DNA of 64,000 nucleotides from Methanovulcanius yangii (GTDB taxonomy: Archaea; Halobacteriota; Methanomicrobia; Methanomicrobiales; Methanomicrobiaceae), in the NCBI RefSeq assembly GCF_018687785.1, contig NZ_LTBL01000001.1, positions 1,913,780 to 1,977,779 on the forward strand, given 5' to 3'. The translations under genes were made by a program, and so were the position numbers. Numbering within the stretch: the stretch's first letter is position 1; each line of letters opens with the position of its first letter. Positions 7,629 through 39,015 of this stretch are shown here, piece by piece. The notes beneath the pieces were generated by a model. The model was given only the letters and a program-made list of their open reading frames with translations, ran no database searches and was not told the DNA's origin.

Positions 7629-7630
7629 CT

Positions 7631-14729: not shown

Positions 14730-15935
14730 TCAGAAGTCAAGGTCCGCCCCGAAGAGCGCGAACCCGCCGTCGGCCGTCCGGATGATCGAGGTGACGGGCC
14801 GGTGCTCCCCGATCTTGAATGTGGTGTCCCAGACGACCGCCCCGGCGCTGTCGAGCCTGACGACCCTGAGGGGAGAGCCGGGATACTCATGTGAACGGAG
14901 ATCGTTGTACTGGGGGTTGGCGTACCCGCAATAGACATACCCGCCGTCCCCGGTCGTGGTGATGATCGTGGAGACCTCCACCGGCCGTTCCCCGGTGACG
15001 TCGCCGTCCGCGGAGAGGGAGACTTCGGTCGTCTCCGTGATCCACTCGTACTCCCGGTAATTCACCTCAATTTCCTGCGTGGTGCCATAGATCAGGTCGT
15101 ACGTGCCGTCGGGGGAGAGGCGGATGATATAGAGGCGGGCGGGCTGTGCGGTCGCCACCGTCCGGTCCCATACCTCGTCTCCGTCGGCATCGAGCCGGGA
15201 GACCCACACGCCTCCATCGCAGGTCCCGGCGGTGACAAAGCCTCCCGCGGGTGCCGCGATGATCGTATCGGCGCTCCGGTCCGGTGCATATGACGTCTCC
15301 CAGAGGACTGTTCCCTCGTCGTCAAGCCCGACGGACCGGTTGGTCCCCGCTGCGGCGTACCCGCCGTCCGGTGCCCTGACCACTCTCCACGCCCACTCGT
15401 CGCTCTCTTCGCCGAGGTCCGTGCTCCAGAGGACGGTTCCGCTCTCATCAATCCGCTTCAGGCATCCCAACCGCGTGGTGACGACATATCCCCCGCCCGG
15501 CGCCTCGACAAGGGTATACCCGGAGTCCGGGGAGGTGTTGGTTTTGAGATCCAATCCCGCTTCTCCCCCCGCGCCAAGTGTGACGATGCGGATGAGTCCA
15601 TAGTTCCCCCCCACGACGACGTGCCCGCCGTCGGCCGTGGTCATGGTGCCCGGCGGTCTCGCCGGCCCCGTCCCGCTCCCCACGATGGCGTACCCGCCGT
15701 CCACGGTCTGGATCATATCATTTCCCTGCCCGTTCGGGTCGCCGTCAATCGTCGCGGTCCACTGCTCGTTCCCGTCTGCATCGATCTTCAGGACCCAGAT
15801 CGTAAAGGTGAGCGGTTTATGCCCCACATCGGAACACCCGGCGGTGAAGAGCAGGGTGAATACGAGAAGGACGATGATGACTGCGTATGCCGCGGTCTTC
15901 GGCGACGGCGTGAGATGGGACTGATGGGCTGGCAT
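14730..15935 (-). CDS. Lipoprotein with PQQ/delta-60-like beta-propeller repeats
   Basis: A 401-residue secreted protein with a signal segment ending in the lipobox LFTAGC (Cys34). The body consists of ~45-residue repeats containing DGGYAIVGSG, DGGHVVVGGN, GGGYVVTTR, DGGYAAAGTN, GGFVTAGTC, DGGYVYCGY and DGGFALFGAD, interleaved with strands such as VLWSTDLGE and VWDTTF. This is a beta-propeller of the kind built from 'W-x-T-F-G ... DGGY' repeats. No catalytic residue is visible; a binding or scaffold role outside the cell is likely. An AT-rich promoter lies just upstream (TTTATATTTATA near 15955-15968). Confidence 0.8.
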   Translation of the reverse strand: MPAHQSHLTPSPKTAAYAVIIVLLVFTLLFTAGCSDVGHKPLTFTIWVLKIDADGNEQWTATIDGDPNGQGNDMIQTVDGGYAIVGSGTGPARPPGTMTTADGGHVVVGGNYGLIRIVTLGAGGEAGLDLKTNTSPDSGYTLVEAPGGGYVVTTRLGCLKRIDESGTVLWSTDLGEESDEWAWRVVRAPDGGYAAAGTNRSVGLDDEGTVLWETSYAPDRSADTIIAAPAGGFVTAGTCDGGVWVSRLDADGDEVWDRTVATAQPARLYIIRLSPDGTYDLIYGTTQEIEVNYREYEWITETTEVSLSADGDVTGERPVEVSTIITTTGDGGYVYCGYANPQYNDLRSHEYPGSPLRVVRLDSAGAVVWDTTFKIGEHRPVTSIIRTADGGFALFGADLDF

Positions 15936-20443: not shown

Positions 20444-20540
20444 GATTTCGTGGTATCTGTTCGACACATGGGATCGACGCATGATCACCCTCCGCTCGCA
20501 GAGGTGACGGTGGCGGCCCGGAAAAAAGATGAGAGGGTGT

Positions 20541-22160
20541 TCACGCCTCGGGGACGAGGAGGGCCATGTCCTTTTCCACGGTGGTGATGCCGCGGATGCC
20601 GAAATTCTCTACGAGAACGTTCAGGACGCCGGGGGAGACGAAGGCGGGGAGGCGGGGTCCGAGGGTAATATTGGTGACGCCGAGGTGGAGGAGGGAGAGG
20701 AGGACGAGGACCGCCTTCTGTTCGTACCATGCGATGTTGTACGAGATGGGCAGGTCGTTCACCCCGACGCCGAAGGCGTCTGCAAGCGCGAGGGCGATGA
20801 CGACGAGGGAGTAGCAGTCGTTGCACTGCCCCGCGTCGAGGACGCGGGGGATGCCGCCGATGTCACCGAGGTCGAGGCGGTTGTAGCGGTACTTCGCGCA
20901 CCCCGCCGTGAGGATGACGGTGTCGTGCGGGAGCGCCTCCGCGAACCGGGTGTAGTAGTCGCGTTCGGGGTGGCGGCCGTCGCAGCCGGCCATCACGACG
21001 AAGCGGCGGATGTCGCCGGCCTTCACCGCGCCCACCACCGTGTCCGCAAGGGAGAGGACGGCGTCATGGCCGGCGCCGGTGAGGAGCTCGCGGCCGGCTT
21101 CGGGGAGGGGCTCGGGTGCCGGGCAGGTCTTCGCCATCGCGATGACCGTGGCAAAGTCCTTCGTCCCGTCCGTCTGTGCGGGGATGTGGGCGAGGCCGGG
21201 GAAGCCGGTGACGCCGGTCGTAAAGACGCGGCCCGCGTAGGTCTCCTTCGGGGGAACGAGGCAGTTCGTCGTGACGACGATGGGGCCGTTGAAGCGCTCG
21301 AACTCCGTTCGCTGGTGGGGCCACGAGCCGCCGTAGTTCCCCACGAGGTGGGGGTACGTGTTCAGGCCGGGGTAGGCGTGGGCCGGGAGCATCTCGCCGT
21401 GGGTGTAGACGTCAATCCCTGCGTCCATCGACTGGTCGAGGAGCCCGGCGAGGTCCTTGAGGTCGTGGCCGGTGATCAGGATCCCGGGCCGGGTGCCGGG
21501 GAGGGTGGCGACGGGGGTGATCGCGGGCGTCCCGTAGGCGCCGGTGTTCGCCGCATCGAGGAGGGCGAGCATGTCGACGCCCACCTTCCCGCACTCGAGG
21601 ACGAGGCCGACCATCGTATCGACGGGGAGGTCCTCGAGGGTGGAGGCGAGCGCCCGCTGCATGAAGGCGAGGATTGCGGGGTCGGTCGAGCCGAGCACCT
21701 CGGCGTGGGTGTAGTAGGCGCCGAGGCCCTTGAGGCCGTAGACGAGGAGCTCGCGGAGCGAGCGGACGTCCTCGTTTGCCGTTGCAAGGACGCCGACCGT
21801 CGCCGCCTTTGCGAGGATGGATGCCTCTCCCGCGGGGGTCCAGGTGCAGGCGTCCGGTTCGCCGTCGCCTGCGGGGGGCAGGGCGTCACGCATCCGGACG
21901 GCGCGGTCGATCATCGCCCCGAGCCGGGCGACATCGAAGTTCACGTTCGTGAGCGTTGCAAAGAGGGATTCTGCGATAAAGAGGCCCGCATCGGGGTTCT
22001 CCTGTCCCGTCTCCATGGCCGCGAGGTTTCGGACGGAAAGCCCCTTGCAGAGGTGGATGAGCACATCCTGGTAGGCCGCCGTCGTCTCGTCCTTGCCGCA
22101 GACGCCCCGTTTGGTGCATCCGGTGTTGTTTGCTGCTTCTTCGCACTGGTAACAGAACAT
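20541..22160 (-). CDS. hcp: Hybrid cluster protein (hydroxylamine reductase)
   Basis: A 539-residue enzyme. The N-terminus CYQCEEAANNTGC...CG gives C-x2-C-x8-C-x5-C, the short-spaced cluster motif of Hcp from strict anaerobes. Hybrid-cluster ligands are visible: MAGCDGRHPERDYY, ILTAGCAKYRYN, DAGQCNDCYS and TNCLVPPKETY. Role: cytosolic reduction of NO or hydroxylamine and nitrosative-stress defence. A good ribosome binding site (AAAGGAG) precedes ATG 22160. It is divergent from an HxlR-type regulator. The promoter region contains GATAC repeats likely to be the operator. Confidence 0.95.
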   Translation of the reverse strand: MFCYQCEEAANNTGCTKRGVCGKDETTAAYQDVLIHLCKGLSVRNLAAMETGQENPDAGLFIAESLFATLTNVNFDVARLGAMIDRAVRMRDALPPAGDGEPDACTWTPAGEASILAKAATVGVLATANEDVRSLRELLVYGLKGLGAYYTHAEVLGSTDPAILAFMQRALASTLEDLPVDTMVGLVLECGKVGVDMLALLDAANTGAYGTPAITPVATLPGTRPGILITGHDLKDLAGLLDQSMDAGIDVYTHGEMLPAHAYPGLNTYPHLVGNYGGSWPHQRTEFERFNGPIVVTTNCLVPPKETYAGRVFTTGVTGFPGLAHIPAQTDGTKDFATVIAMAKTCPAPEPLPEAGRELLTGAGHDAVLSLADTVVGAVKAGDIRRFVVMAGCDGRHPERDYYTRFAEALPHDTVILTAGCAKYRYNRLDLGDIGGIPRVLDAGQCNDCYSLVVIALALADAFGVGVNDLPISYNIAWYEQKAVLVLLSLLHLGVTNITLGPRLPAFVSPGVLNVLVENFGIRGITTVEKDMALLVPEA

Positions 22161-22175
22161 CGTGGTGTCTCCTTT

Positions 22176-22219
22176 GTATCTTTATGATACCAAATAGTAA
22201 ATTGATACTAAGATATAAG
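22176..22219. promoter_or_regulatory. hcp/HxlR divergent promoter with GATAC repeats
   Basis: GTATC-tttat-GATAC is an inverted repeat (22176-22190), and TGATAC recurs as a direct repeat at 22185 and 22203 (18 bases apart). GATATAAG at ~22211-22218 reads as a TATA box on both strands (CTTATATC on the minus strand). It lies ~27 bases before ATG 22246, so the regulator mRNA is probably leaderless. Confidence 0.5.
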
Positions 22220-22245
22220 TAGGGAAGAGTTTCCATGAGTATACC

Positions 22246-22605
22246 ATGCAGGAAGGGTGCACGGTCAACCTGACCGTGAAGTATCTGGCGAAGAAGTGGA
22301 CGCTCCTCATTCTCCTCGAGCTCTACAAGGGCGAGGACTACAACCGGCGGTTCTCGGAGCTGAGAGACGCCCTTGGGGACATCACCCCGAAGATCCTCTC
22401 GGCCCGCCTCCGCGAGCTCGAGGACGAGGGACTGATCACGAAGACGGTCGATGCCTCGAGCTTTCCCGTGAAGGCGGAGTACCGGCTGACGGAATCGGGC
22501 CTCGAGATCATCGACGTGATAAAAGACATCAAGCGGTGGGCGCTGAAGTGGAAAGTCGACAACATCGCCTGCGGGAGCCAGGACTGCCGGGATTGTGTGC
22601 TGTAG
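22246..22605 (+). CDS. HxlR-family transcriptional regulator next to hcp
   Basis: A 119-residue winged-helix protein: VKYLAKKWTLLILLELYKGE is the HxlR opening, RFSELRDALGDITPKILSAR the recognition region, LRELEDEGLITKTVD the turn into the wing, and PVKAEYRLTESG the wing. Cys5 in QEGCTV occupies the place of a redox-sensing cysteine seen in some HxlR proteins, and the C-terminus adds CGSQDCRDC. Role (inferred): senses nitrosative or redox stress and controls hcp, from which it is divergent. No ribosome binding site; leaderless start supported by the TATA position. Confidence 0.88.
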   Translation: MQEGCTVNLTVKYLAKKWTLLILLELYKGEDYNRRFSELRDALGDITPKILSARLRELEDEGLITKTVDASSFPVKAEYRLTESGLEIIDVIKDIKRWALKWKVDNIACGSQDCRDCVL

Positions 22606-22726
22606 GGGCTAAAGGTGGATTGCCCCACGGATGAATTTTCATCAATATTGGCTGATACACTAATTGAGAACAATTCATCCTCAGAATGCCTCTTCGTTCA
22701 TCCTGAGTATGAAACCACAAGACTAA

Positions 22727-24997
22727 TTAATTGATATTTGCCGTAAAATCGCCCATGAACATGCCGACCATTAAATTGTCAATAAACTTCTGGGCTTCAG
22801 ACTGTCCATCCCTCCAGAGATTCAGGAATTCCTTTAATTCTTTTATTTTTTCCAGAACCATTTGCTGATCTTCAAGGGACGTCATCAATGGGACTGTGAT
22901 GTTGCCAATATATTTTTTAAACCTGCGTGGTGAATGGCTGATAGTATCAACACAGGGGAGATAGTCTAGGTCTTCTGCAACTTTTTTTCCTGCGGGGGAA
23001 TCGCAGAGATAGTGATGGAGGTATTCAGGCACCACTTTTTTAGAATTAGCACGGATGAGGAGGAAGTCCTTTGAGAAATATCGGTCTTTCATCTGTTCAG
23101 TACAAATAATCCACAGGGGCGTATCCGACGGTCTTGGGCAGCTATCTGGTTGTGGTATTCTGAACAGGATGTCCCCTTTCCGGATACTTTGCTTCGAACC
23201 GTGAGCCGCAATTCCGGATGCCCCGTTAAACTGTCCACTGGCATCGAAATCCCGCCCACAAATCATATCGGGCTTTTTCTCCATGCTGTCAGCAATGGAT
23301 TTCATTTCTACGCCATCTATGATTTTGCTGATATCTCTGAGATGAATCTCCTGAACCCGGTCTTCATTTGAAGATATATACCCGATTGGAGTCATTTTTG
23401 CTTCTTCAGGAGGGATGTCGCCCTTGTGATTATCCTGGAATCTGTCTAACCACTCTGATATTTCATTCGTTTTCTTTCCAAATTCTTCCCGACTCGCACT
23501 AGGGTCGGGTGTTTCTCTCAGATCACCGACGGAGGGAACGACATACAACCATGGGTCCAAGTCATATTCTCTGTCCCGTACCTCATCAACAGGGACCGCA
23601 CGCGCTATACCAACACGATCTCCATCAAGTTCGCTGATATATTCCACAAAATCTTCCCAATCCTCCGGAATATCTTCAGCATTGATGATCAGCACATAAT
23701 CCTGCTCTGCTTTCGGCCTTCCGTCACGGAGTATCAGCATACAGTCCTGTTTGATGGCCTTCTTTCCCACCGCCTTCGGAAAGAGAATTATGCTCTCCAG
23801 GATTCCTCTTTCGATGATACGCTCTCGGATCTTCTGCTCTTCACCGCCGCGGGAGAGGGCACTTCGATCGAGAACCACTGCACCACGCCCGCCCTTGGTA
23901 AGTGAACCATACACTTTCTGGACCCAGAGCCATCCGGTGAATTTTGGCATCCCATCCTGGAACCTGAACTGCTCTTTTTCCATTGCGGAAGGGTCCAAAT
24001 CACTGGTACGTCTGGTTGATGCAGGGGCGACATAAAAAAAATCGTACTGCTCTGATGGCGTTACGGATTGAAGGGAATTTTTTATTGAGAGGGTGATATT
24101 GCCCAATGCCATCGTGTAGAGGGCCATAAACAGTTCTGCCGTCGTGCGGTCATCCTTGTCAACGGTTAGATCGAAGGTGAGATCATAGTTTTCAGGATAT
24201 ACCTGCTTTATGCAGGGGAGGAGTGAGAGAAATTCCTTCTCATCATCGAAGTGAACCGATACGCGGTCTTTCTCTTCCAGGTCACCGGACATCGAGAGGG
24301 CAAGATGGGGGCGGATACCGAGTGGGCGCAGATTGAGTTTCTGGTCTTCATCTTCGGGTACATCCTCGTTTATGGATGATGGCAACGATTCGAAATTGAA
24401 TAAATCGGCGATAAAGCGAGGACTGAGATTTTTCAAAGATGGGTCGTTAAAATCTTCTTTGAACTGTTCCTCCCAATTGGGACTGAGAGTGAAATAATCC
24501 GATGAACCAAGGGTGTTCAGGATCTTCTTCCGGGTCTCAGGATCGGTGACGGTGACCGCGCTGGATTGGAACAATAGTTCAGAATACAGTGAAAAGTCGA
24601 TAGTCTTCGAACCAAAGAGACTGTTCAATGCTATTTCGGGCTGTTGTTCCTTTGCGTTTTTAAAGAATGTGGAAATGAATGTGAGTTTCAGGATCTCCAG
24701 CGCATCCTCTCCGGAAAATCCATCCTCTGCGTTATCCTGACAATTCTCCTGGCCGTCGGCAGGGATGAAACGGTAGAACTTTTTCCTTCTGTCTTGGAGA
24801 TTTTGCCACTTTATGACCTTATTGTTCTTCACCAACGTTGAAATGATCCCAATCACCTGATTTTTATTGTCGGCGAGCGGCTTGCCGTCAGATTTGGGAT
24901 ATTCGCGAAGGAATTTCAGGGCATCATCAGTCGTAAATTGTCTTGTGCCGAAGTGCTTTTCGAGTAGTTCAGACCGCCTTTTTATCCATGTTTTCAT
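22727..24997 (-). CDS. Degenerate N6-adenine methylase / specificity-subunit-like fusion
   Basis: A 756-residue protein. Residues ~1-80 look like a winged helix (EKHFGTRQFTTDDALKFLRE). Residues ~95-500 follow type I HsdM: a central FTGWLWVQKVYGSLTKGGRG then AVVLDRSALSRGGEEQKIRE then GILESIILFPK, all as in N6-MTases. The SAM motif I (DPxxGSG) is not visible, and the catalytic NPPF/Y is replaced by VAPA in YDFFYVAPAS (~315), so methylation is unlikely. Residues ~540-750 resemble one HsdS target-recognition domain with a helical spacer (GNITVPLMTSLEDQQMVLEKI). I infer a DNA- or MTase-like recognition protein without methylation. A+T-rich. ATG 24997 has GAGG upstream; ATG 25003 is an alternative. 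Divergent from the HEAT protein. Confidence 0.7.
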   Translation of the reverse strand: MKTWIKRRSELLEKHFGTRQFTTDDALKFLREYPKSDGKPLADNKNQVIGIISTLVKNNKVIKWQNLQDRRKKFYRFIPADGQENCQDNAEDGFSGEDALEILKLTFISTFFKNAKEQQPEIALNSLFGSKTIDFSLYSELLFQSSAVTVTDPETRKKILNTLGSSDYFTLSPNWEEQFKEDFNDPSLKNLSPRFIADLFNFESLPSSINEDVPEDEDQKLNLRPLGIRPHLALSMSGDLEEKDRVSVHFDDEKEFLSLLPCIKQVYPENYDLTFDLTVDKDDRTTAELFMALYTMALGNITLSIKNSLQSVTPSEQYDFFYVAPASTRRTSDLDPSAMEKEQFRFQDGMPKFTGWLWVQKVYGSLTKGGRGAVVLDRSALSRGGEEQKIRERIIERGILESIILFPKAVGKKAIKQDCMLILRDGRPKAEQDYVLIINAEDIPEDWEDFVEYISELDGDRVGIARAVPVDEVRDREYDLDPWLYVVPSVGDLRETPDPSASREEFGKKTNEISEWLDRFQDNHKGDIPPEEAKMTPIGYISSNEDRVQEIHLRDISKIIDGVEMKSIADSMEKKPDMICGRDFDASGQFNGASGIAAHGSKQSIRKGDILFRIPQPDSCPRPSDTPLWIICTEQMKDRYFSKDFLLIRANSKKVVPEYLHHYLCDSPAGKKVAEDLDYLPCVDTISHSPRRFKKYIGNITVPLMTSLEDQQMVLEKIKELKEFLNLWRDGQSEAQKFIDNLMVGMFMGDFTANIN

Positions 24998-25003
24998 CAG
25001 CAT

Positions 25004-25348
25004 CCCTCGGTGTTGGGTAATCGATCACCTGATCGGTGTGCAATGGAGAATTGGTTCATCATCTGCAATAATATTACTTTAGTAATGTAATAAAAAAACA
25101 TTATTTCAAAATATTGCATTACCTAGCGTATATTAACCATGCATGCATAGGTATCTGAGTGCGCCTTCCGGGTTGGCATGGTGGCGTAAGCCCCGACGAC
25201 CGGTACGGGGGAACGTTGCAGAACGGGAACAGCCCGGCAGTGCTTGCCAACCGGATGGGATGGCTATGAATGATCATGGTCCTCGTCACCGATAAAAATG
25301 ATCACACTGCTGTGAATCCTTCCTTCAGGGTGCAGGGAGCTGATATGA
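25004..25348. other. Divergent intergenic region of the accessory island
   Basis: It separates the degenerate methylase gene from the HEAT-repeat gene. The left third is very A+T-rich with the inverted repeat ATTAC-ttta-GTAAT (25073-25086), and further GTAAT/ATTAC copies nearby, suitable for an operator over a promoter. The middle third is GC-rich and highly foldable (see the ncRNA candidate at 25161). No protein-coding frame with recognisable features is present. Confidence 0.5.
25161..25260 (+). ncRNA. Candidate structured RNA
   Basis: A GC-rich block inside an A+T-rich intergenic region. A long-range stem pairs CCGGGTTGGCA (25168-25178) with TGCCAACCGG (25245-25254), about ten pairs with one bulged G. 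Inside it are CCCCG/CGGGG (25191-25195 with 25206-25210), CGGG-aacag-CCCG (25224-25236) and two alternative short hairpins, GGC-GTAA-GCC (25183-25192) and CGTT-gcag-AACG (25214-25225). I do not recognise a known RNA family and the strand is not certain. It could also be a mobile-element end or a DNA cruciform. Confidence 0.35.
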
Positions 25349-26866
25349 ATGGATGAGAAAAAAGTGCGCAAAGAGGTCGAAGAATGGCGGCGAACCGTCA
25401 TTCGGGCAGCCATCGAACAGGGAAAACAGGCAAGTGCCGGAGATTTTCTGATGCAGACGCTCTGGGCGGTTGCTGCAGAGAGGAATCATGAGGATATTCC
25501 GCTGATCATGGAAATCGTCCAGAAAGGCAATGACGCCATTCGCCTTGAGGCGGGCAAAGTGCTCCTCGCCTACGGTGAGAGCGCCACCGAGCATCTTCTC
25601 GGCAAAATTCATGAGAACTCCCCGGAATCGACCCCTCCGGCACTTGTCGCGCTGGGCATGATGCGGCGGGAATCTGATACGGACCTGATTCTGGAGATGA
25701 CAGGCCATGAGGATGCGGGCATCCGCTGTGCCGCGGCAGAGGCGCTTGGTTTCCTCGGCCAGCCGAGCGTTGCCGCAATCCTGAAACTCTATGGGCTTCT
25801 GGAGGATGAGAGCGATGAGGTCAAATGTGCGGCCTCACATGCGTTTGTTCTGCTCTGCCATTCGGATGCGGCAATTCCCATGGTCCAGTGTGCTGCAGGT
25901 GTCGCATCATCTTTTCATCGGATGAAAATCCTCGAAGATGTGAGCATTATGAAGAATCCTGAGGTGACGCCATACCTTCTTGATATGATCCGCACGGAGT
26001 TTGAACAGTGCAGGGATGATCAATTCCGTGGATCGTATGGAAGTCTCATCCGTGAACGGAGGCTAAAACCCTTCCTTGACGCCCTTAAAGCCTGTATGAC
26101 ACCTGCCTATTGTGATGAATTCAGTCAGATCCTCCATCCCGACCCTGCAATTAGTGAGATCTTTGCACAGGAGGGCGCTCCGTCGATGAGGGATGACTAC
26201 TTCAGGGTCCACCAGCACCTCCTCAGGATCGCGAAGGTATGCGGGGATTCATATGCCGATTGCCTGTCCTTTCTGGTGCGCGAATACCTGAAGGAGGCAG
26301 ACGCGTTTCTCTCGTTACGAAATCAGCCATTCAGCTACATCAGTGATTTTCCGGCATACGAGGGGGTTCGGACCCTCTCCTCCCTCGGCCCAAGGGGAAA
26401 GGTGTGTGCGTATGAACTGCTCCATGAAAGCGAGATGCCCTCTCTTGTCATTATTGCAATGGCGCTGAGCGAGGACGAAGAGGGGTTGTTTTCACTCCTG
26501 AAGATTGCGCTTGAGTCAGAGAACAAGGATATCCGTGAACAGGCGAGAAAATGTCTTTTCAAGGGTGATATTCGGGAGATCCTGCAGAAATTCATCACCT
26601 TGCCCCGGAGGGATGAGGGCACGTTTACCCTTTGCGACCTGGAGTTTGCAACCAAGCTGAACAAACACATCCTCGATAGGGTTATGTCCGGGTTGTTCTC
26701 ACCGGACCCGGCCAAGCGTAAGGAAACTGTGGAGTATTTTCTGTATGGTGCGGAGAAGGTGCATGGGACTGACATTGATGAGCAGTTCCTTTTCATGCGT
26801 AAGGTGCACCAGCTGCAGATGGCAAACCTTCGTTTTGAACTCGGAGGGGATTGCGATGTGGTGTAG
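25349..26866 (+). CDS. HEAT-repeat protein of the accessory island
   Basis: A 505-residue, all-helical soluble protein. ATG 25349 follows a GGGAGCTGAT ribosome binding site. HEAT/PBS-lyase-like repeats are clear between residues ~50 and 190: IRLEAGKVLLAYGESATEHL, ALVALGMMRRESDTDLIL, IRCAAAEALGFLGQPSVAAI, VKCAASHAFVLLCHSDAAIP, and again around residue 380 (IREQARKCLFKGDIREIL). Such solenoids bind proteins or nucleic acids. No catalytic motif is seen. It is divergent from the methylase-like gene and about 185 bases before the AAA+ operon on the same strand. Likely an adaptor of the system; this is inferred from position. Confidence 0.75.
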   Translation: MDEKKVRKEVEEWRRTVIRAAIEQGKQASAGDFLMQTLWAVAAERNHEDIPLIMEIVQKGNDAIRLEAGKVLLAYGESATEHLLGKIHENSPESTPPALVALGMMRRESDTDLILEMTGHEDAGIRCAAAEALGFLGQPSVAAILKLYGLLEDESDEVKCAASHAFVLLCHSDAAIPMVQCAAGVASSFHRMKILEDVSIMKNPEVTPYLLDMIRTEFEQCRDDQFRGSYGSLIRERRLKPFLDALKACMTPAYCDEFSQILHPDPAISEIFAQEGAPSMRDDYFRVHQHLLRIAKVCGDSYADCLSFLVREYLKEADAFLSLRNQPFSYISDFPAYEGVRTLSSLGPRGKVCAYELLHESEMPSLVIIAMALSEDEEGLFSLLKIALESENKDIREQARKCLFKGDIREILQKFITLPRRDEGTFTLCDLEFATKLNKHILDRVMSGLFSPDPAKRKETVEYFLYGAEKVHGTDIDEQFLFMRKVHQLQMANLRFELGGDCDVV

Positions 26867-26962
26867 GGGTATGGTCCGCCGAAAAGATCTGCGGAATAAA
26901 AGTCGGAATATAATATATTTTTTCGAAATTTGCGGCGAAATGCTTCTATATGGAATGAATGG

Positions 26963-26981
26963 ATTCAATGAATATTTGAAT
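26963..26981. promoter_or_regulatory. Inverted repeat ATTCAA-N7-TTGAAT before the AAA+ operon
   Basis: A perfect 6-bp palindrome in the A+T-rich spacer, about 70-90 bases upstream of the first small ORF and near several TATA-like stretches (for example ATATTTAAA at ~27033-27041). Possible operator. Confidence 0.3.
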
Positions 26982-27050
26982 ACAAAATATCCGACCAAAT
27001 CAGAGATATATGTGAAAAATATTCATTAAAAAAATATTTAAATTATCTTG

Positions 27051-27200
27051 ATGTATTTGCCAATAGTGTACTTTGGATCAGGGTATTCCGCCATTTTGGA
27101 GGGAACTTCCCTGAGCGAACTTCCTGCAAAGGTGGGGGAAATGAAAGAACGGGGCAGGACCACAACGGCCCTGATGAAGATTGAATTTGAGGAGAAGTGA
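27051..27200 (+). CDS. 49-residue protein heading the AAA+ operon
   Basis: A short frame beginning MYLPIVYFGSGYSAILEGTS and ending GRTTTALMKIEFEEK. The stop is five bases before the next ATG, and its last codons carry the GAGGAG ribosome binding site of that gene, so the two are tightly joined. The basic MKERGRTTT segment followed by alternating hydrophobics suggests a defined peptide, not chance coding. No family is recognised; it could be an inhibitor, a tag-like substrate or an assembly factor of the downstream AAA+ complex. Confidence 0.6.
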   Translation: MYLPIVYFGSGYSAILEGTSLSELPAKVGEMKERGRTTTALMKIEFEEK

Positions 27201-27204
27201 ACGA

Positions 27205-28365
27205 ATGAACAAAATTACTGCAAACTTCGACGAACTTGTCGGATTCGATTACACCGACGAAGAGGAATGGAGAACATTTGTTGAGGAAACCGTGGTGCCG
27301 GTGTACCAGGATGTTCAGGCTCTTTGTGAGTTGAGGGAATGGATGAAGGAGATTGCCGGTGAGAAGGGGATAATCACAAAAGACGATCTGGACAAGAATG
27401 AATCGCTCAAGACAATCCTATTTGGTGGCTTAACGGATGATTTGGAACAACCTCCAGATGGAGAATACCCGGTTTGTGGGATATATCGCAATATTCTCGA
27501 GTTCAAATTTGATCCTCAGGGGGCGAAGTTCAGCAGATCTGCGACCTTGGAATTTTTTAAAGGTGAAGATCTGTTTGGGCTCTCCCATTCTAAAAATCTA
27601 CTCGAATTATCAAACACTTGCAATAAAATTATGGAGAGATTCGGTATTCATGGAGGGTGCTGTAAATATGATTTAAGGCAACATCCTGAGAAATTACAGG
27701 AATTCCTTAATGATTTCCTTTGTCACCTCCAGAAGGCGACGATCAATCATAATTCGAAGATATTTTTCATTAAAGGGCTGAATTATGCTCATCTAAAAGG
27801 ATTAGAGGAGTATTACCCGCGGTTGGGGAATGGAACGATCCGGGACCAGGTTTTCTTATTAATTGGGATTGAACCTTGGGATTTCCCATGCCATGTTGAA
27901 GATGATGACAGGGATGCCTATACCCTTTATCGGCATCAGGAAGGTGGATTTGCGGAATCCGTTGCAAAGATGAACTGGCAGATATGGGTACTTCTTGACG
28001 CATTAGCTGTAAAATTTGGGTATTTACCAATATCGATTGGTTCATCCAGCAGATCCTATATTGCTGCATTAAAAGAAGATGGGTTCAATGCATCAATTAC
28101 GGAATTTGAAGATTATTTTTCGAAAAGGTCCTATACAAGTGATAACCGTAAAGAAAATCCGGAAAGGACACTGTTAATTGACGAATCTGGTTTTATCTCT
28201 GTCCAAGGGGACTATTCAGATTATATTAGAGAAATTATCCCTCAATATCCGACAATTCAGAAAAAAAAAGGTATTGAAGAAATTATGGATAAGCTCTTTC
28301 CTGCCGTGATCACGGGGCTACTGGAATTAAAGTGTAATTCAGGCACTGAATTGACATTTTACTAA
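27205..28365 (+). CDS. Uncharacterised 386-residue protein of the AAA+ operon
   Basis: Soluble, acidic, no signal or membrane segment. ATG 27205 with GAGGAG nine bases upstream. Recognisable landmarks are only descriptive: an acidic N-terminus (FDELVGFDYTDEEEWRTFVE), a central FGIHGGCCKYDLR and IKGLNYAHLKGLEEYYP, and PISIGSSSRSYIAALKEDGF towards the C-terminus. I find no nuclease, protease or nucleotide-binding motif. A+T-rich codon use matches its neighbours and differs from the GC-rich flanks, consistent with acquisition as a block. Only about 18 bases separate it from the next gene. Confidence 0.7.
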   Translation: MNKITANFDELVGFDYTDEEEWRTFVEETVVPVYQDVQALCELREWMKEIAGEKGIITKDDLDKNESLKTILFGGLTDDLEQPPDGEYPVCGIYRNILEFKFDPQGAKFSRSATLEFFKGEDLFGLSHSKNLLELSNTCNKIMERFGIHGGCCKYDLRQHPEKLQEFLNDFLCHLQKATINHNSKIFFIKGLNYAHLKGLEEYYPRLGNGTIRDQVFLLIGIEPWDFPCHVEDDDRDAYTLYRHQEGGFAESVAKMNWQIWVLLDALAVKFGYLPISIGSSSRSYIAALKEDGFNASITEFEDYFSKRSYTSDNRKENPERTLLIDESGFISVQGDYSDYIREIIPQYPTIQKKKGIEEIMDKLFPAVITGLLELKCNSGTELTFY

Positions 28366-28383
28366 CCGATACTGGTGATCGTG

Positions 28384-30372
28384 ATGTCGGAAAATCGAAA
28401 TAAATTCCGTTCAATACAGAAGGAGTCACAGACATCTTCAGAGGAGCAAGTCAACGCAGAGAAAATTGTCTCCGGTGTGAGACCTTCTCATCGGTTTACT
28501 TTCATCTTCAGAAATCTCAAAGAAACAGGTTTCTCCAAACTTAATATATCCCCGAAAGAGCCAGATTTCGCGTTCTTCGAAAAATTAGACTGTAATGCGT
28601 CTTTGATGGGTGTGAATATCTCCTTTCACGCTCCCAAAAATACGGGCCTTGGCACTCTTCCCATCCTCACCAAGATTCCCGAATATGACTTCTTTGGAAT
28701 GTCCGGTGATGCTCTGTCAATGGCGGACGTTTTTCTTACCTTTCGCCCTCCGGAAGAAACGGGTTTTTCCACCGTTACGATTTGTGTCCAGACGCCGGAT
28801 GTTAATTTTTTCGCTGCTAGTGAAAAGACCCTGTGTCTCGATGCATCTTCCCTCTTTAAAGAGGTTGGTGAGACCGGAATCTCAGAACTGAAAGTGGTGA
28901 GTTCCCGGCCACTTGGCATAGCATATGACTACGAAAAATTTGGAAAATTATCGAATGTTAACAATTCAGAGGAGGATTCTATGGAAAAATCTGAGAATGA
29001 ACAGACAAATGAAGCTAACCACAGCGGTTCGGTCCCAAAGGAACCTTTCCTGGAATTTGAAGAACTTCTCGGTGCCGACGGAGCCTTTCCCCGCTCATAC
29101 AGTGACATGCTTCGCGGCCCGCTCCTGGTGATCGTAAAGGAGGATTCGGAGAATTCCTGCAAGCATGTGCCGGTCCTCTTTGCCGTGAAGTATCTTACGA
29201 CTGTTCTTTCAAAGGAACGGTTCGATACCACTTTCCGGAAATCCGAATTCAGGTTTGATGTTGGCTCATCGTGGTCCGGGTCGACCGATCAGCTGGACTC
29301 GTTCAGCGAGCAGAGCCTCAGTAACTACACGCTCGGGAAAAAGATTGAATTTGCAGACCTCAGGAAAGTGCCGGCAGAGGCGGAAATCCTCTTTGGCACC
29401 ATCCAAAACCGGCTTGCGGGTGCATCCATGCAGGAGTTCGGATTTGGCATCTTTGCAACCGAGGAACCCGAGGAGGTTAAGGGGATGATAGAAGAATGCT
29501 GGGCAAACGCAGGGTACTCCGACGTCTGCAGAATCATTACGTGCAACGGCGTTGACGAGGAACATCTGAGAAGCCGGTTGACCGGGTACGATGCCACTAC
29601 CACGAAGACGAAGACATTTCATGCGATGCAGAACCGTCGACAGGATGCCCTGTCTGCGACGAACAGGCTCTTCGACACTTTTGTCAAGCTTGGGCCGGGT
29701 GACCAGGACGAATACCAGTATCCATTTAAGGTGGCGTGCTATGCTGCGGCCTTGTTTGAGTGTACCGACCAATTCATCTTTACCGATAAAAATTTCGAAC
29801 AACTTTCTCGGGCGGAAACCGAATCCCTGCAAAATTGGATGGAGAAGATATTGGAGGAGAATTCTGACGAATCTGATCTACTATTCGAGAAGTTATTGAA
29901 AATTGTTGATATTAAAGAATCAAAATTGGCCGGAGAGATATTTTCGGTAAGAACAGAGAAGAAATTAGACAAATTCGAGATCACTCCTGACATTAGCATA
30001 TTCCGCAACCTCAAGTCCGAAGAAGAGAAGTTAGGAGATATAATCGAATTTGAATCTCTCACCCATTCGGTATATCCGATGAAGACAATCGATGGCACAC
30101 TGAAGAAATATCTGGATATAGGTTCGGATTCAGGTTTGGAAAATTCACTTCTGCGTCTCGTCGTTTCCCCAGAGGCGGGACTTTTATTCCGTGAACAACT
30201 TCTCCGTCACGAGAAATTCTGGAAAAATCAGTTAGAGAAAAATATTTTCAAGGAAATTCAGTTCTGTACTCTCAATCCACCTGAACCAGGACTTTACCGC
30301 TGGACCATCGAACCGATTCCTGAAAAGAATACGAAGAAAAAGAATGGCACAGATGAGGCGGAGGCAAACTAA
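28384..30372 (+). CDS. Uncharacterised 662-residue protein with N-terminal ~38-residue repeats, partner of the AAA+ ATPase
   Basis: ATG 28384 follows a full GGTGATC ribosome binding site. The first ~190 residues contain four degenerate repeats, each with an ETGF/NTGL/ETGI-type turn, a beta strand and a P-[DE]-x-x-FF motif (FRNLKETGFSKLNISPKEPD; APKNTGLGTLPI; RPPEETGFSTVTI; KEVGETGISELKV). An acidic Asn/Glu linker follows, then a ~440-residue region of mixed alpha/beta character with no known motif (FGFGIFATEEPEEVKGMIEE, FDTFVKLGPGDQDEYQYPFK). The C-terminus is Lys-rich. The stop TAA shares its last base with the ATG of the AAA+ gene, so the two products are translationally coupled and probably form a complex. 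Confidence 0.7.
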   Translation: MSENRNKFRSIQKESQTSSEEQVNAEKIVSGVRPSHRFTFIFRNLKETGFSKLNISPKEPDFAFFEKLDCNASLMGVNISFHAPKNTGLGTLPILTKIPEYDFFGMSGDALSMADVFLTFRPPEETGFSTVTICVQTPDVNFFAASEKTLCLDASSLFKEVGETGISELKVVSSRPLGIAYDYEKFGKLSNVNNSEEDSMEKSENEQTNEANHSGSVPKEPFLEFEELLGADGAFPRSYSDMLRGPLLVIVKEDSENSCKHVPVLFAVKYLTTVLSKERFDTTFRKSEFRFDVGSSWSGSTDQLDSFSEQSLSNYTLGKKIEFADLRKVPAEAEILFGTIQNRLAGASMQEFGFGIFATEEPEEVKGMIEECWANAGYSDVCRIITCNGVDEEHLRSRLTGYDATTTKTKTFHAMQNRRQDALSATNRLFDTFVKLGPGDQDEYQYPFKVACYAAALFECTDQFIFTDKNFEQLSRAETESLQNWMEKILEENSDESDLLFEKLLKIVDIKESKLAGEIFSVRTEKKLDKFEITPDISIFRNLKSEEEKLGDIIEFESLTHSVYPMKTIDGTLKKYLDIGSDSGLENSLLRLVVSPEAGLLFREQLLRHEKFWKNQLEKNIFKEIQFCTLNPPEPGLYRWTIEPIPEKNTKKKNGTDEAEAN

Positions 30373-31409
30373 TGGAAGATCCAACATTTGCGAGTACGAA
30401 TGATAAAAAGGCAGAGAGGCTGACTGACTGCATTACTAATATTGAGAAGAAGTTCTGGCAGCCATCATCCGGGGAAGAGAATGTTCTACACAAGATGGTA
30501 CACCTTTTTGATGCCATCAATACTGGCAGTTATCCCGGGATGACTCCTCCGAGGGGTATTATTCTCTATGGCGAACCAGGCACAGGAAAGACACACCTGA
30601 TGAATCTTATTGCACGGGAGATGTTTGCCGAAGGGATAGAAGATAAAAAGAAAGCTGATGCGGAGGTGAACAAGCGTATGGTGGTCATCCATGGACCTGC
30701 AATCTACTCCCAGTACTACGGGAAGAGTGAGGAGAACCTGAGGCTTGCCTTTATGCAGGCGGAGCGAATGGCCACAAAGGCTGCCAAGGCTGGGAAAGGG
30801 CGACTCGCTCTTATCTATATCGATGAACTGGACTCCCTCGCACCAAACCGGGCAGAAACACGTGGGGACCTTGAACCGCGTATCGTGGGGGAGCTTCTGA
30901 CACGGATGGACGGCTTCAAGCACAAATCCGAAAATTATGCCGAAGGCCATGTGATCGTTATCGGTTCAACCAACCGGCTTTCAAAAATTGATCCCGCCCT
31001 GAGGCGTCCCGGACGGTTTGGTTCGGAGTTTGAATTCAAATCTGCGACTTCCCCGGAAGAAATCTCAAAAATTATTGAAAAGACTCTGAAACACAGAGTT
31101 GGTAAGGATCATCATACCATAGGTGAATCCGAATGCATAAGCGTGGGTGAAATGATATTTGCCGAGCAGAAGAAGGTAACAGAGGAAAAGGAGGTAACAG
31201 AGGTAACACCTGCCGAGATTTTGGGAATAATCCATAAAGCCCAGATGCATGCTCTCATGAACACTTCTGAATCCGGGGAATGTAAGCTCAATATTGAAAA
31301 TATGAAATATGCTGTGGAGAATTTTGAGTTTAAATCAAAGGAAGAATCCTCGGAAATTAAATATCAAATACAAATCATTTCTGACATTCAACAGTCAGAT
31401 AAGGAATAG
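30372..31409 (+). CDS. Single-domain AAA+ ATPase (Cdc48/FtsH-like core)
   Basis: A 345-residue ATPase. Walker A GEPGTGKTH is near residue 67, the aromatic pore-loop SQYYGKSEENLR near 113, Walker B LALIYIDELDSLAPNR near 150, sensor 1 GSTNRL near 198, and the second region of homology with arginine fingers DPALRRPGRF near 211. It then has the small helical lid. These are classical-clade AAA features; the YYG pore loop implies threading of a polypeptide. No protease domain or second AAA module is present, so a partner must supply any cutting activity. Last gene of the operon, overlapping the 662-residue gene by one base. Convergent with the TIM-barrel gene. Confidence 0.88.
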   Translation: MEDPTFASTNDKKAERLTDCITNIEKKFWQPSSGEENVLHKMVHLFDAINTGSYPGMTPPRGIILYGEPGTGKTHLMNLIAREMFAEGIEDKKKADAEVNKRMVVIHGPAIYSQYYGKSEENLRLAFMQAERMATKAAKAGKGRLALIYIDELDSLAPNRAETRGDLEPRIVGELLTRMDGFKHKSENYAEGHVIVIGSTNRLSKIDPALRRPGRFGSEFEFKSATSPEEISKIIEKTLKHRVGKDHHTIGESECISVGEMIFAEQKKVTEEKEVTEVTPAEILGIIHKAQMHALMNTSESGECKLNIENMKYAVENFEFKSKEESSEIKYQIQIISDIQQSDKE

Positions 31410-31454
31410 GCACCTTAGATGCTTACGGGCGATATTTGCCGAATACCCAAAATC

Positions 31455-32597
31455 CTACACTCTTCTCCTTCTCCCCAACGCCTCCCGCTGCGCCCGAAGC
31501 GCCTCCCCGTGCTCCTCAGCCGTCCCCGCGATGAACTCATGTACGACCCACTCCGGCGCCGCCGCCTCAACGATCTCCCCGCACCGCTCCGAGGTGAAGG
31601 GCCGGTGCTGGTCCGTGAGGACCGCGTGCTGGAAGGCGAGCGTCTCCTGGTCGTGGCGGGCCATCTCGAAAAAGCCGTTCGGGACGCCCCGGCGGCGGCG
31701 TTCCTGCCGGAGGGAGTGCGACCCGCTCCAGTGGAGGTGGACGACGCCGATCTTCTCGACGATCGCCGGCGGCAGAGCCCGGATGCAGTCGCAGACGGCG
31801 TCGATGCAGTCGTCTTCATCGTCGGAGAGGGCAACTGCATTCATCAGGTGGCCGGTGTCGAGGAGGAATCCGTAGCCCTTGAAGGCAAGCCGGTCCATGA
31901 ATGAGAGGACGGCGTCCGGGTCGGTGTAGGTGAGGCCGGGGTACCAGAGGTTCTCGAACATCAGGGGGACGGGGGGTTCGCCCTCCGGGAAGGCGCGGGC
32001 GAGCTCGTTGAGGAAGTCAGCAGCCCGGTCGAGCACCCCGGCATCGCCCATCGCGTAGGTCTGCAGAAACATCTCGACCGGCTGGTAGTACCCGACGTGG
32101 TAGACCGCGTACGCCGCCCCGGCCTCGGCTGCCCGTTCCAGCTGGAGGCGGAGGGCGGCCAAGAGCGAGGCGTGGGTGGTGTGCGGGAAGAAGGAGGGGT
32201 CGAGGGGGTCGGGGACGGAGGCATTCCCGGGATCATTGGAAGTCGTGGCGTTGTTCGGATCTCCGGCCGGGGCCGTCCCGTCCTCCTCCAGCTCCTGCTC
32301 CTGTTCTTCCTCCCGTGCCGCCGCCATCATCTCCGGCCATGCGGAGTGGAAGGGGAGGTGGACGCTCCTCACGAGGCCGGGCGGGAGGTCCTCAGGCATC
32401 GGTTCGTAGCCGGTGTAGAGCTCGACGCCTGCACAGCCGTGGGCGGCGCAGAAGCGGGCGACGTCCTCCCATGTCCCGCCGAAGCGGGCCCGGTCCCACG
32501 GGTAGACGGCGAGGTTGATGAGCTCGCTGTATGAGTGGGGGGCGGTTCCGGCGGCAACGGGTGCCGGGGTGGTGGATGGAATAGGCGAACGGTCCAC
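31455..32597 (-). CDS. Xylose-isomerase-like TIM-barrel protein (sugar phosphate isomerase/epimerase family)
   Basis: A 380-residue protein from GTG 32597, which has AAGGAG seven bases upstream; longer frames add only Pro/Ser-rich sequence. The barrel starts INLAVYPWDRARFGGTWEDV and proceeds through GVELYTGYEP, VRSVHLPFHSAWP, YAVYHVGYYQPVEMF, MFENLWYPGLTY, GFLLDTGHLMNA and IGVVHLHWSGSHS, which carry the usual His/Glu/Asp metal ligands of AP-endonuclease-2-like barrels. An acidic Gln/Glu insertion (EEEQEQELEEDG and an Asn/Pro stretch) interrupts the barrel near residue 95-130. Substrate unknown. GC-rich again, marking the end of the acquired island. Confidence 0.78.
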   Translation of the reverse strand: MDRSPIPSTTPAPVAAGTAPHSYSELINLAVYPWDRARFGGTWEDVARFCAAHGCAGVELYTGYEPMPEDLPPGLVRSVHLPFHSAWPEMMAAAREEEQEQELEEDGTAPAGDPNNATTSNDPGNASVPDPLDPSFFPHTTHASLLAALRLQLERAAEAGAAYAVYHVGYYQPVEMFLQTYAMGDAGVLDRAADFLNELARAFPEGEPPVPLMFENLWYPGLTYTDPDAVLSFMDRLAFKGYGFLLDTGHLMNAVALSDDEDDCIDAVCDCIRALPPAIVEKIGVVHLHWSGSHSLRQERRRRGVPNGFFEMARHDQETLAFQHAVLTDQHRPFTSERCGEIVEAAAPEWVVHEFIAGTAEEHGEALRAQREALGRRRRV

Positions 32598-32943: not shown

Positions 32944-35900
32944 ATGAATGTGATACGATTGACGAGGAGATCTCAGGCCTGCCTGATCGGTATGCTTATC
33001 CTCCTGCTGATGGTGGTTCCGGCCTCAGCTGCAGGAACGACGGAAATTACCGTCACGAAACTGGCAAATGACGGGGTTACCGTTCTCAATGAAACGACAG
33101 TGGATTATATCTGGATGGAGGCGAACCTCCCGGTCTATGGCGACGGGGTGACGCACTACTACCACCAGGGCCCGGTCTTCATCGACTATCCTGACCCCGA
33201 GATTGAGGCGGCGTTGCGCTGGAACCCGGATGAGGACATTAATTGTTACGGATATTTCGATAAGGACATGGGCGCCGTAAAAGGCACGAATGCAGTCGAT
33301 CTTTTAAATCTCGTGGGCGGAATGAATGCCGGCGAAGAAGCGAAATTCATAGCGAGGGACGGATGGAGCGATACTCTCTCCTATGACAACATCTACCAAT
33401 ATTCAGATCGCGAGGGGCCAATAGTGCTTGCATGGTGGCGCCCGGATCTGGGGTATGTATCAGAAGCGTATGTCGAAGGTATCCGGATGGTGTGGTTCGC
33501 GGACACCTCGACGAATCCGTGGGGAGTACATATCTTTGGGGCCTGGGACTGGCACGAGGCGGCGGATGAAAATTACTGGTATTATTATTATCAGTATGAC
33601 TCCCAAACCCAGACGGTAGAGGCATATCCTACCACTACTGGTCTATCCGGGAAGTATATCGATCAGATAACGATTTACAGCGATGATCCCGTCCCCGAAC
33701 TGACCTCGATCGCGGTCACGCCGGCGGATGCCACCGTCGAGATCGGTTCGACGCAGCAGTACGCGGCGACGGGCTATGACCAGTCCGGCCATGTAATGGA
33801 GGACCTCACCTTCACATGGGCAAGTTCGGACCCGTCGGTGGGACCCATCGGCACGGACGGCCTCTTCTCCGCTGCGGCGGCCGGGTCCTCGACCATCACC
33901 GCAACCTCCGGGGGTATCAGCGGCAGCACATTGGTGACCGTCCCCCTGCCCCCGCCCGTCCTGACGGAGATTATCGTTTCGCCCGCTACGGCGAGCGTCT
34001 CCCTGGGAGATACCTCCACCTTTACGGCGACGGCGTATGACCAGTACGGCGATACGATGACCGGCGTCGATATCATCTGGTCGAGTTCGAACGAGACGGT
34101 GGGGACGATCACCCCGGCCGGTCTCTTCACCGCGCTTGCCGTTGGTGAAACGACCCTCGCCGCCTCCGCGAGCGGCATCAGCGGGACCGCCGCGGTGACC
34201 GTCCCCCTCCCGCCACCGGAGCTTGCCTCCATCCTCCTGATGCCGGAGACTGCCACGGTCGAGATTGGTTCGACGCAGTCGTTCACTGCGACGGGCTATG
34301 ACCAGTACGGCGATCTCCTGCCGGACGTCGTCTTCGCGTGGTCGAGCTCGAACGAGACGGTGGGTACTGTCGGTGCGGACGGGTTGTTCTCGGCTGCGGT
34401 CCCCGGCACCACTGTGGTGACCGCCTCCTCCGGGAGCATCTCTGCAACCGCGGCGGTGACCGTTCCCCTGCCGCCGCCTGAACTCACGACCATCGAGGTT
34501 ACGCCGTCCACCGCGACGGTCGAGATCGGTTCGACGCAGCAGTTCTCGGCGACAGCGTACGACCAGTATGGCGATGTAATGGATGATATCACGATTGGCT
34601 GGTCGAGTTCTGATGAAGGGGTCGGGACGATCACGTCCGCCGGCCTCTTCAGTGCCGCCTCCGCGGGTGAGGCGACTATCACGGCCTCTTCCGGAAGCAT
34701 CTCCGGGACTGCCGTAGTGACGGTGCCGCTTCCGCCGCCTGAGCTCGCAACAATCGAGGTTGCGCCGTCCACCGCGACGGTCGAGATCGGTTCGACGCAG
34801 CAGTTCTCGGCGACGGCATATGACCAGTATGGCGACGTGATGGCGTGCATCACGATTGCGTGGTCGAGTTCGGATGAAACGGTGGGCACCATCACCGAAG
34901 GCGGCCTCTTCAGTGCCGCCTCCGCGGGCGAGGCAACGGTCACGGCTACTTCCGGGAGTGTTTCCGGCACTGCCGTTGTGACGGTGCCGCTTCCGCCGCC
35001 TGAGCTCGCGACAATCGAGGTTCTGCCGGCCGATGCCACAGTCGAGATCGGGGCAACACAGTCGTACAGCGCAACAGGCTATGACCAGTACGGCGAGCCA
35101 ATGCCGGATATCACGGTCTCTTGGGCCTGCTCTGATACGGCCGTCGGCACCATCAACAAGAAGGGCTTGTTCTCCGCCGATGCCGCGGGAACGGCGACGA
35201 TCACCGCCACCGCCGGCAGCATCACCGGGCAGACCGGCGTGACGGTTCCGCTCCCACCGTCCGAACTGACGACGATCGAGGTCACGCCTGCCTCTGCTGA
35301 AGTTGCTATCGGTGAGACGCAGCAGTTCACCGCAACCGGCTATGACCAGTATAGTGCGGTGATGACGGGTGTCACGTTCACGTGGTCGAGCTCCGACGAG
35401 AGCGTTGGTTCGATCACCTCCGGCGGTCTGTTCAGTGCTTCCGCAGCCGGTTCGACGACGGTGACCGCTACCTCCGGCCTCATCTCTGATGGTGCAAGCG
35501 TCACCGTCCCGCTGCCCGCCCCTGTCCTGACCTCTATCGCGGTCTCCCCGTCCAGTGCAACGGTCGGTATCGGCGAAACCCAACAGTTCACCGCGACCGG
35601 GTATGACCAGTATGGCGATGTGATGGCAGGTGCCACGTTCACGTGGTCGAGCTCCGATGAATCGGTCGGTACCGTGACATCCGATGGTCTCTTCAGTGCT
35701 TCAGAAGCAGGTTCGACGACAATTACAGCGAGCTCCGGTTTCATCTCCGACATTGCAAGCGTCACCGTCCCGCTGGCCGCCCCTGTCCTGACCTCTATCG
35801 CGGTGTCCCCGTCCACTGCAACGGTTGAGATCGGCGAGACGCAGCAGTTCACCGCAACCGGGTATGACCAGTATGGCGATGTGATGACGGGTGTCACGTT

Positions 35901-38706: not shown

Positions 38707-39015
38707 AAATTCTCATCCTCTTTTTCTCATGGTGAGATGGTTTGGAGTTACAGGTGGCGTCGATTTTTCAATTCGTAGGACTGTGAAAGGCAATTTGCCG
38801 TTCAGACTAATTATTTATTAATTTTTTCTTTTTGATGCAAAATTACCGCCTAATTTTAAATCGAATGGGTGGGTTCCCTCCAATACGGATAAAATTAATT
38901 TATTTAATTCAATTATATTAATAATAACAACTTTTATGAATCCGGCTTCCGACCGTTTTCTTAACTGTAAGTGCTGAGGGGGACGTCTCTTTTCAGTGTA
39001 CGGCAGGTGATAGAA
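38707..39015. other. Intergenic region between BIG2 and PKD/metallophosphatase genes
   Basis: A T-rich stretch with a small hairpin, TCTCA-tgg-TGAGA (38725-38737), probably ends transcription of the upstream gene. The right half (38800-38960) is strongly A+T-rich, with several TATA-like stretches around 38900-38935, and presumably holds the promoter of the next gene. No gene is seen. Confidence 0.45.

What the first reader, a model, noticed from the sequence alone, without database searches (positions are those of the whole stretch)
22727..31409. Candidate undescribed conflict system: dead methylase/specificity fusion, HEAT protein and a four-gene AAA+ operon
Six A+T-richer genes sit between GC-rich housekeeping genes. 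A degenerate HsdM/HsdS-like protein is divergent from a HEAT solenoid. Behind the HEAT gene a tight operon (49-aa peptide, 386-aa and 662-aa unknowns, Cdc48-like AAA+ ATPase) has 1-18-base junctions. An AAA threading motor with unknown partners, a DNA-recognition-like protein without methylation, and signs of transfer together look like a defence or conflict module. I know no named system with this set. Seen: gene order, motifs, composition. Inferred: common function.
Basis: partly seen in the sequence, partly recalled or inferred. Interest (0 to 1): 0.82.

Follow-up and report, generated by a model that had tools for sequence, protein, structure and literature searches.

The report
Archaeal nuclease operon with AAA+ motor

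Summary
In detail: six genes with the stated order, motifs and low G+C. In a sister species the flanking genes are joined, so all six lie in one insertion (22607-31472) replacing about 130 bp. The six-gene 'system' does not hold. Only the 386-aa (D), 662-aa (E) and AAA+ (F) genes are a conserved operon. It recurs, without the methylase-like, HEAT or 49-aa genes, in three to four other archaea, three of them 80-90% identical across two phyla. E's C-terminus has a PD-(D/E)XK-like motif (D...E-x-E) invariant in 17 relatives, behind a tail of 39-aa repeats. Profile search found E relatives in 17 of 393 genomes; all 19 intact copies have a D-type or shorter G-type partner directly upstream. One G-E pair sits between BrxC and PglX of a BREX operon; one E domain is fused into a plasmid operon with ZacB-like and TmtA-like genes. 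No Pfam, NCBIfam, PHROGs or PADLOC model covers D or E. Best reading: an undescribed archaeal nuclease-effector family (D/G-E) with an AAA+-bearing branch, probably defensive. The motor's action on the nuclease is inferred.

The parts
22607..31472 (.). Inserted block holding all six genes; replaces about 131 bp present in the sister species between the HxlR-type regulator and the isomerase-like gene
   Evidence: blastn of sister contig L050: matches run 20505-22606 (90%) and 31473-32526 (81%), contiguous in the sister; no target-site duplication longer than an 11-nt chance-size match and no terminal inverted repeat
22727..25003 (-). Gene A: degenerate HsdM-like domain plus HsdS-like C-terminal half (probably DNA-binding, not methylating)
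   Evidence: Pfam N6_Mtase 7.5e-17; SAM and NPPF motifs lost; mad5 / type I specificity matches weak; only the ~150-aa methylase core matches HsdM-type genes elsewhere
25140..25280 (+). G+C-rich, hairpin-forming leader upstream of gene B; function unknown
   Evidence: dG -63.8 kcal/mol but z only -1.04; no Rfam family; unique in its genome and 59 relatives apart from a chance match
25349..26866 (+). Gene B: HEAT-repeat protein
   Evidence: HEAT_2 1.3e-15; no relative at E<=1e-10 in 147 other genomes of the phylum
27051..27200 (+). Gene c: 49-aa ORF directly before D; unproven as a gene
   Evidence: reading frame only; no homologue upstream of D in related loci; no SD-like leader
27205..28365 (+). 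Gene D: 386-aa partner protein of a new archaeal family
   Evidence: full-length match to an HMM of 12 D proteins that excludes it, E 9.4e-26; no Pfam/NCBIfam
28384..30372 (+). Gene E: 662-aa probable PD-(D/E)XK-like nuclease: repetitive tail (about residues 45-200), central domain (about 225-410), C-terminal nuclease-like domain (about 430-650 of the 665-aa GTG-start ORF)
   Evidence: invariant D...E-x-E motif in 17 relatives; 39-aa tandem repeats, 0 of 200 shuffles as good; alignments; AF2 on the relative's C-terminal domain
30372..31409 (+). Gene F: single-module CDC48-type AAA+ ATPase of a module-specific lineage
   Evidence: Pfam AAA 5.7e-30; forms a clade with the F proteins of the other D-E-F loci, 100/100, apart from plasmid CDC48 D1 and D2 domains

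Best explanation
The block is a horizontally gained accessory island. Its core is a three-gene operon D-E-F, an AAA+-bearing branch of a previously unmodelled archaeal D/G-E family. Shown: E always follows a D- or G-type partner; E ends in a conserved acidic D...E-x-E motif of PD-(D/E)XK type and starts with a low-complexity tail that is tandemly repeated in several members; in the branch containing the window, F follows E immediately and is phylogenetically module-specific. Inferred: E is a DNA (or nucleic-acid) nuclease effector held in a complex with D. F, a ring ATPase with an intact YYG pore loop, pulls on E's repetitive tail or on D to switch the nuclease on or off. The module limits viruses or plasmids. 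A (dead methylase plus specificity half) and B (HEAT) are other cargo of the same island and may act as local add-ons, for example a DNA-recognition subunit, but are not needed for the family.
For: Conserved operon and HGT: D-E(-F) is 80-90% identical (E) in Ca. Methanoperedenaceae GB37, an Archaeoglobales MAG and a Thermoplasmata MAG, and complete D-E-F sits alone in G603. In 19 of 19 intact E loci D or G is immediately upstream. F is present in 4 of 4 loci of the window's branch whose contig continues past E (split in GB37) and in none of the other 14 non-branch loci. The E tree puts the window with those loci at 100/100, with a long-branch warning; the F tree agrees. Nuclease: invariant D, E, E in 17 aligned relatives and PD in many; AF2 of the isolated domain gives helix-strand-strand-helix-strand order with the E-x-E on a central strand. 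Defence setting: G-E between BrxC (2549 bits) and PglX (2473 bits) in L077; E domain fused in a Halorussus plasmid operon with ZacB-like PLD protein (6e-17), a TmtA-like protein (3.6e-86) and an integrase nearby. Auxiliary PD-(D/E)XK nucleases inside BREX loci are a documented pattern (PMC12839542). Patchy distribution: 17 of 393 genomes. Proteolysis link: a proteasome-type gene 2 nt behind E in L076.
Against: Most D-E pairs (Archaeoglobales and others) sit between housekeeping genes with no defence gene recognised next to them, so a cellular role is possible. The fold support is weak: AF2 pLDDT 62 with four sequences, and Foldseek found nothing below E 1e-3 in PDB or the viral library; full-length E gave no usable model. 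The catalytic lysine is replaced by glutamate. No physical contact between F and E or D was tested. The Thermoplasmata and Archaeoglobales copies come from MAG contigs and could be mis-binned.
Confidence: 0.55

Rival explanations
1. One integrated six-gene defence system: A recognises DNA, B is a scaffold, c a small regulator, D-E the effector and F the motor.
For: All six genes lie in one insertion with an exact empty site in the sister species; A and B are divergent and B-c-D-E-F run in one direction; a dead methylase-specificity fusion would make sense as a sensor.
Against: D-E-F recurs without A, B or c in every other locus; full-length relatives of A and any relative of B were not found; B and c are separated by 184 nt of very A+T-rich sequence that could hold a separate promoter; GC3 differs between B (0.61) and D (0.41).
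Confidence: 0.15
2. D/G-E is a cellular DNA-processing or repair pair of archaea, with F a remodelling ATPase, and not a conflict system.
For: Solitary D-E pairs beside housekeeping genes in several archaea; no defence model in PADLOC matches D or E.
Against: Presence in only about 4% of sampled genomes of the phylum, near-identical copies across phyla, decayed copies, and operon positions inside BREX and in a plasmid defence-like operon.
Confidence: 0.22
3. D-E-F are genes of an integrated plasmid or virus (replication or segregation functions) rather than host defence.
For: CDC48-family AAA+ ATPases and PD-(D/E)XK nucleases are frequent in archaeal virus- and plasmid-derived islands (PMC4158269); one E is on a plasmid; an IS630-type transposase lies near the GB37 copy.
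Against: No match for E in IMG/VR or in 50,697 phage records; no replication, capsid, integrase or partition gene in the window block; no tRNA site or direct repeats at its ends.
Confidence: 0.08

Closest known systems
IetAS anti-phage system (IetA AAA+ ATPase plus IetS protease)
   Same: Small operon with a CDC48-like AAA+; F matches PADLOC IetA models (P0006 5e-16; L017 F 1.3e-40)
   Different: No subtilisin-like protease; partners are D and a probable nuclease E; F is better matched by CDC48 (NCBIfam TIGR01243 1.9e-37)
Auxiliary PD-(D/E)XK nucleases of BREX loci (PMC12839542)
   Same: A G-E pair lies inside a haloarchaeal BREX operon
   Different: Window has no PglZ, BrxC or PglX; the E family is not covered by any model searched; D/G partner and AAA+ F are extra
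Type I restriction-modification (HsdM/HsdS)
   Same: Gene A has an HsdM-like core and an HsdS-like C-terminal half
   Different: Catalytic motifs of the methylase lost; no HsdR in the block
MADS (methylation-associated defence system)
   Same: Gene A weakly matches mad2 (5.7e-5) and mad5 (8.1e-5)
   Different: None of the other MADS subunits; methylase dead
CDC48/VAT/PAN unfoldases of the archaeal proteasome
   Same: F is a CDC48-type AAA module with pore loop; a proteasome-type gene follows E in L076
   Different: F lacks the N-domain and a second intact ATPase module, and forms its own lineage

Membership tests
PD-(D/E)XK nuclease superfamily (gene E, C-terminal domain) | Acidic catalytic motif D...(D/E)-x-K; BamHI-type E-x-E variant known (own knowledge) | tested here: met
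   D then E-x-E in all 17 relatives and in the window (D539, E558, E560); met only in the E-x-E variant, the lysine is absent
PD-(D/E)XK nuclease superfamily (gene E, C-terminal domain) | alpha-beta-beta-beta-alpha-beta core fold | tested here: inconclusive
   AF2 topology compatible, pLDDT 62; Foldseek no match below E 1e-3, although several weak hits are RecE-type nucleases
PD-(D/E)XK nuclease superfamily (gene E, C-terminal domain) | Nuclease activity | not testable with these tools
   needs biochemistry
CDC48-type AAA+ ATPases (gene F) | Walker A, Walker B, second region of homology | tested here: met
   Pfam AAA 5.7e-30; motifs GEPGTGKT, IYIDELD, STN, RRPGRF
CDC48-type AAA+ ATPases (gene F) | Two tandem ATPase modules and N-domain of CDC48 proper | tested here: not met
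   single module in the window; second module degenerate, without Walker A, in L011 and L017
IetAS | IetA AAA+ next to IetS subtilisin-like protease | tested here: not met
   no S8 protease among A-E by Pfam
Type I restriction-modification | Active HsdM | tested here: not met
   SAM and NPPF motifs lost
Type I restriction-modification | HsdR translocase-nuclease | tested here: not met
   no such gene in the block
BREX | PglZ, BrxC and PglX | tested here: not met
   absent from the window block; BrxC and PglX present around the L077 relative
CBASS with TRIP13 | CD-NTase plus HORMA plus TRIP13 | tested here: not met
   F matches TRIP13 models only as a generic AAA+ (4e-13); no CD-NTase or HORMA match
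MADS | mad1-mad8 set | tested here: not met
   only weak mad2, mad5 and mad8 similarities

The most novel reading that the evidence does not exclude
D-E-F is a new type of archaeal defence system in which a proteasome-style unfoldase ring grips the repetitive tail of a nuclease (or its D partner) and so gates DNA cleavage. Sister loci would use a proteasome-type peptidase (L076) or BREX components for the same purpose, and the window variant adds a dead methylase-specificity protein as DNA sensor.
Probability: 0.18. Interest if true: 0.85.

Novelty: new variant of a known kind. Interest (0 to 1): 0.6.

Why it matters
D, G and E are protein families with no Pfam, NCBIfam or PADLOC model found here (D and E also none in PHROGs), yet they form a consistent gene pair in about 4% of sampled genomes of one archaeal phylum and reach a second phylum by transfer. 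Archaeal antiviral systems are much less known than bacterial ones. This gives a defined, testable two- or three-gene module, with an annotatable nuclease motif, an AAA+ branch and a BREX link, in place of a string of 'hypothetical proteins'.

Tried and rejected
Single-protein searches with D and E in IMG/VR, phages and plasmids gave nothing. Plain BLASTP of D against the GB37 partner gave no significant match; homology needed profiles. AF2 of full-length E failed (pLDDT 34). Foldseek of the isolated domain was not significant. A weak E hit in G243 did not hold up. The G+C-rich leader at 25140-25280 was tested as an RNA family member or repeated element: no Rfam hit, not repeated, and the one match in a relative is inside an unrelated coding gene. 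An 'LDT' motif in the E tail was considered (16 seen against 3.7 expected by shuffling) but is carried by a few members only; the tandem-repeat result is the safer statement. A literature search for ZacABC gave only unrelated hits.

Full report
OBSERVATION. The six ORFs and their order are as described. The block is A+T-richer than its surroundings (GC3). Gene A has an HsdM-like core (N6_Mtase 7.5e-17), but in the alignment with an intact HsdM the SAM-binding DPACGSGG and the catalytic NPPF are gone while the neighbouring core is kept. Its C-terminal half weakly resembles specificity subunits. Gene B is a HEAT solenoid. Gene F is a CDC48-type AAA+. D and E have no significant match in Pfam, NCBIfam or PADLOC, nor in PHROGs. 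The 49-aa ORF is real as a reading frame, but nothing else supports it.

ONE INSERTION. In the closest relative with both flanks assembled (G001, same genus), the transporter-like gene, the HxlR-type regulator and the isomerase-like gene are contiguous. Alignment stops exactly at window base 22606 (the regulator's stop codon) and resumes at 31473, so 8866 bp in the window stand where the sister has about 131 bp. No target duplication, terminal inverted repeat or tRNA was found. The six genes were therefore gained, or lost in the sister, as one block. This supports transfer; it does not show common function.

WHICH GENES BELONG TOGETHER. A search of 393 genomes of the phylum with E alone gave two distant homologues, in GB37 and an Archaeoglobales genome. 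In both, the gene before E resembles D and the gene after it resembles F. A collection scan added a Thermoplasmata MAG, and a class-wide profile search added G603 with a complete D-E-F set. E is 80-90% identical between GB37, the Archaeoglobales contig and the Thermoplasmata contig, which belong to two phyla: recent horizontal spread of the operon. GB37 is a single-contig genome; the other two are MAG contigs, so mis-binning is possible for them. None of these loci has A, B or c, and neither a full-length relative of A nor any relative of B appeared in 148 sampled genomes of the phylum or among 72,556 plasmids. The conserved unit is D-E-F.

THE WIDER FAMILY. A six-row profile of E found matches in 17 of 393 genomes. 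Their neighbourhoods show a simple rule: all 19 intact E genes have a D-type gene (14 cases, including the window) or a shorter G-type gene (5 cases) directly upstream; L076 has D-G-E. Profile comparison suggests G is related to part of D (hhalign E 1.5e-6). The window's D matches an HMM built only from the other D proteins over most of its length (E 9.4e-26). F accompanies only the window's branch: 4 of 4 loci whose contig continues past E (the Thermoplasmata contig ends inside E), and none of the 14 loci outside the branch. Trees place the window's E with GB37, Archaeoglobales and G603 (100/100, long branches noted). They place its F with their F proteins, apart from plasmid CDC48 D1 and D2 domains (100/100, small outgroup). 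The D tree is unresolved.

WHAT E IS. The last ~200 residues of E carry an invariant D followed by E-x-E in all 17 aligned relatives, usually as D-(I/V/L)...(Y/V)E-(I/V)-E-(T), preceded by a helix with a conserved H or Q...K. In the window this is D539, E558, E560 (ORF numbering from the GTG). This is a PD-(D/E)XK-type motif with glutamate for lysine, as in BamHI (own knowledge). AlphaFold2 on the isolated domain of the Archaeoglobales relative gives a compatible topology at modest confidence (pLDDT 62); Foldseek was not significant. Family assignment therefore rests mainly on the motif and secondary structure. The N-terminal tail of the window's E is a tandem array with a period of 39 residues (best score 97, 0 of 200 shuffles; harmonics at 78 and 116); several other members have clear repeats of 28-43 residues, others do not.

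CONTEXT. In a haloarchaeon-like genome (L077) the G-E pair lies between BrxC and PglX of a BREX operon, all on one strand. In Halorussus pelagicus the E central and nuclease domains form the C-terminus of a 1403-residue plasmid protein (E-family HMM 3.7e-61). It lies behind a ZacB-like PLD protein and near a TmtA-like protein and an integrase. In L076 a proteasome-type gene (PF00227 4.5e-17) starts 2 nt after E. Many other D-E pairs, in Archaeoglobales for instance, have no recognised defence neighbour. Literature: nucleases of the PD-(D/E)XK class are common extra effectors in BREX loci (PMC12839542), and CDC48-family ATPases are frequent in archaeal 'dark matter' islands (PMC4158269). Neither text, as far as searched, describes this operon.

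MECHANISM. Shown: conserved D/G-E pairing, nuclease-type motif, repetitive tail, module-specific AAA+ with Walker motifs and a YYG pore loop, horizontal spread. Inferred: D holds or guides the nuclease E; F uses ATP to pull on E's tail or on D and so sets nuclease activity; the whole restrains foreign DNA or aborts infection. A could contribute DNA recognition locally; this is speculation, since A is not found with D-E-F elsewhere.

NOVELTY. The components are of known kinds (nuclease effector, AAA+ regulator), but the families and their pairing are not covered by any library searched here. I therefore call it a new variant of a known kind, with moderate-to-high interest and a clear set of tests.

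Noticed in passing
window 32944-48913 (+): Four consecutive large genes (1920, 1688, 540 and 994 aa) share a related N-terminal region and look like tandemly duplicated secreted surface proteins.
   Followed up: no
window 25140-25280: A G+C-rich, strongly folding stretch in the otherwise A+T-rich leader of the HEAT gene; unique in its genome and without an Rfam family.
   Followed up: partly
L087 (NZ_CP035121.1, Halorussus pelagicus plasmid) 404-15344: Plasmid gene group with integrase, TmtA-like DUF3883/sacsin protein, ZacA/ZacB-like proteins and a 1403-aa protein ending in the E nuclease domain: looks like an undescribed Zac-type variant.
   Followed up: partly
L077 2640-17345 (genome G152): BREX operon with a regulator, a nucleotidyltransferase-like gene and the G-E pair inserted between BrxC and PglX; the G gene is split into two frames.
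   Followed up: partly
L076 6272-10853 (genome G191): D-G-E followed 2 nt later by a proteasome-type (Ntn hydrolase) gene.
   Followed up: partly
L010 9377-10672 (Ca. Methanoperedenaceae GB37); L036 8389-9259; L078 8888-9826: Decayed copies: the AAA+ gene is split in GB37 beside an IS630-type transposase, and the E gene is broken in two other genomes.
   Followed up: no
G697 contigs C27 and C8 (L037, L036): One Thermoplasmata genome carries two E-family copies, one intact to the contig edge and one broken.
   Followed up: no
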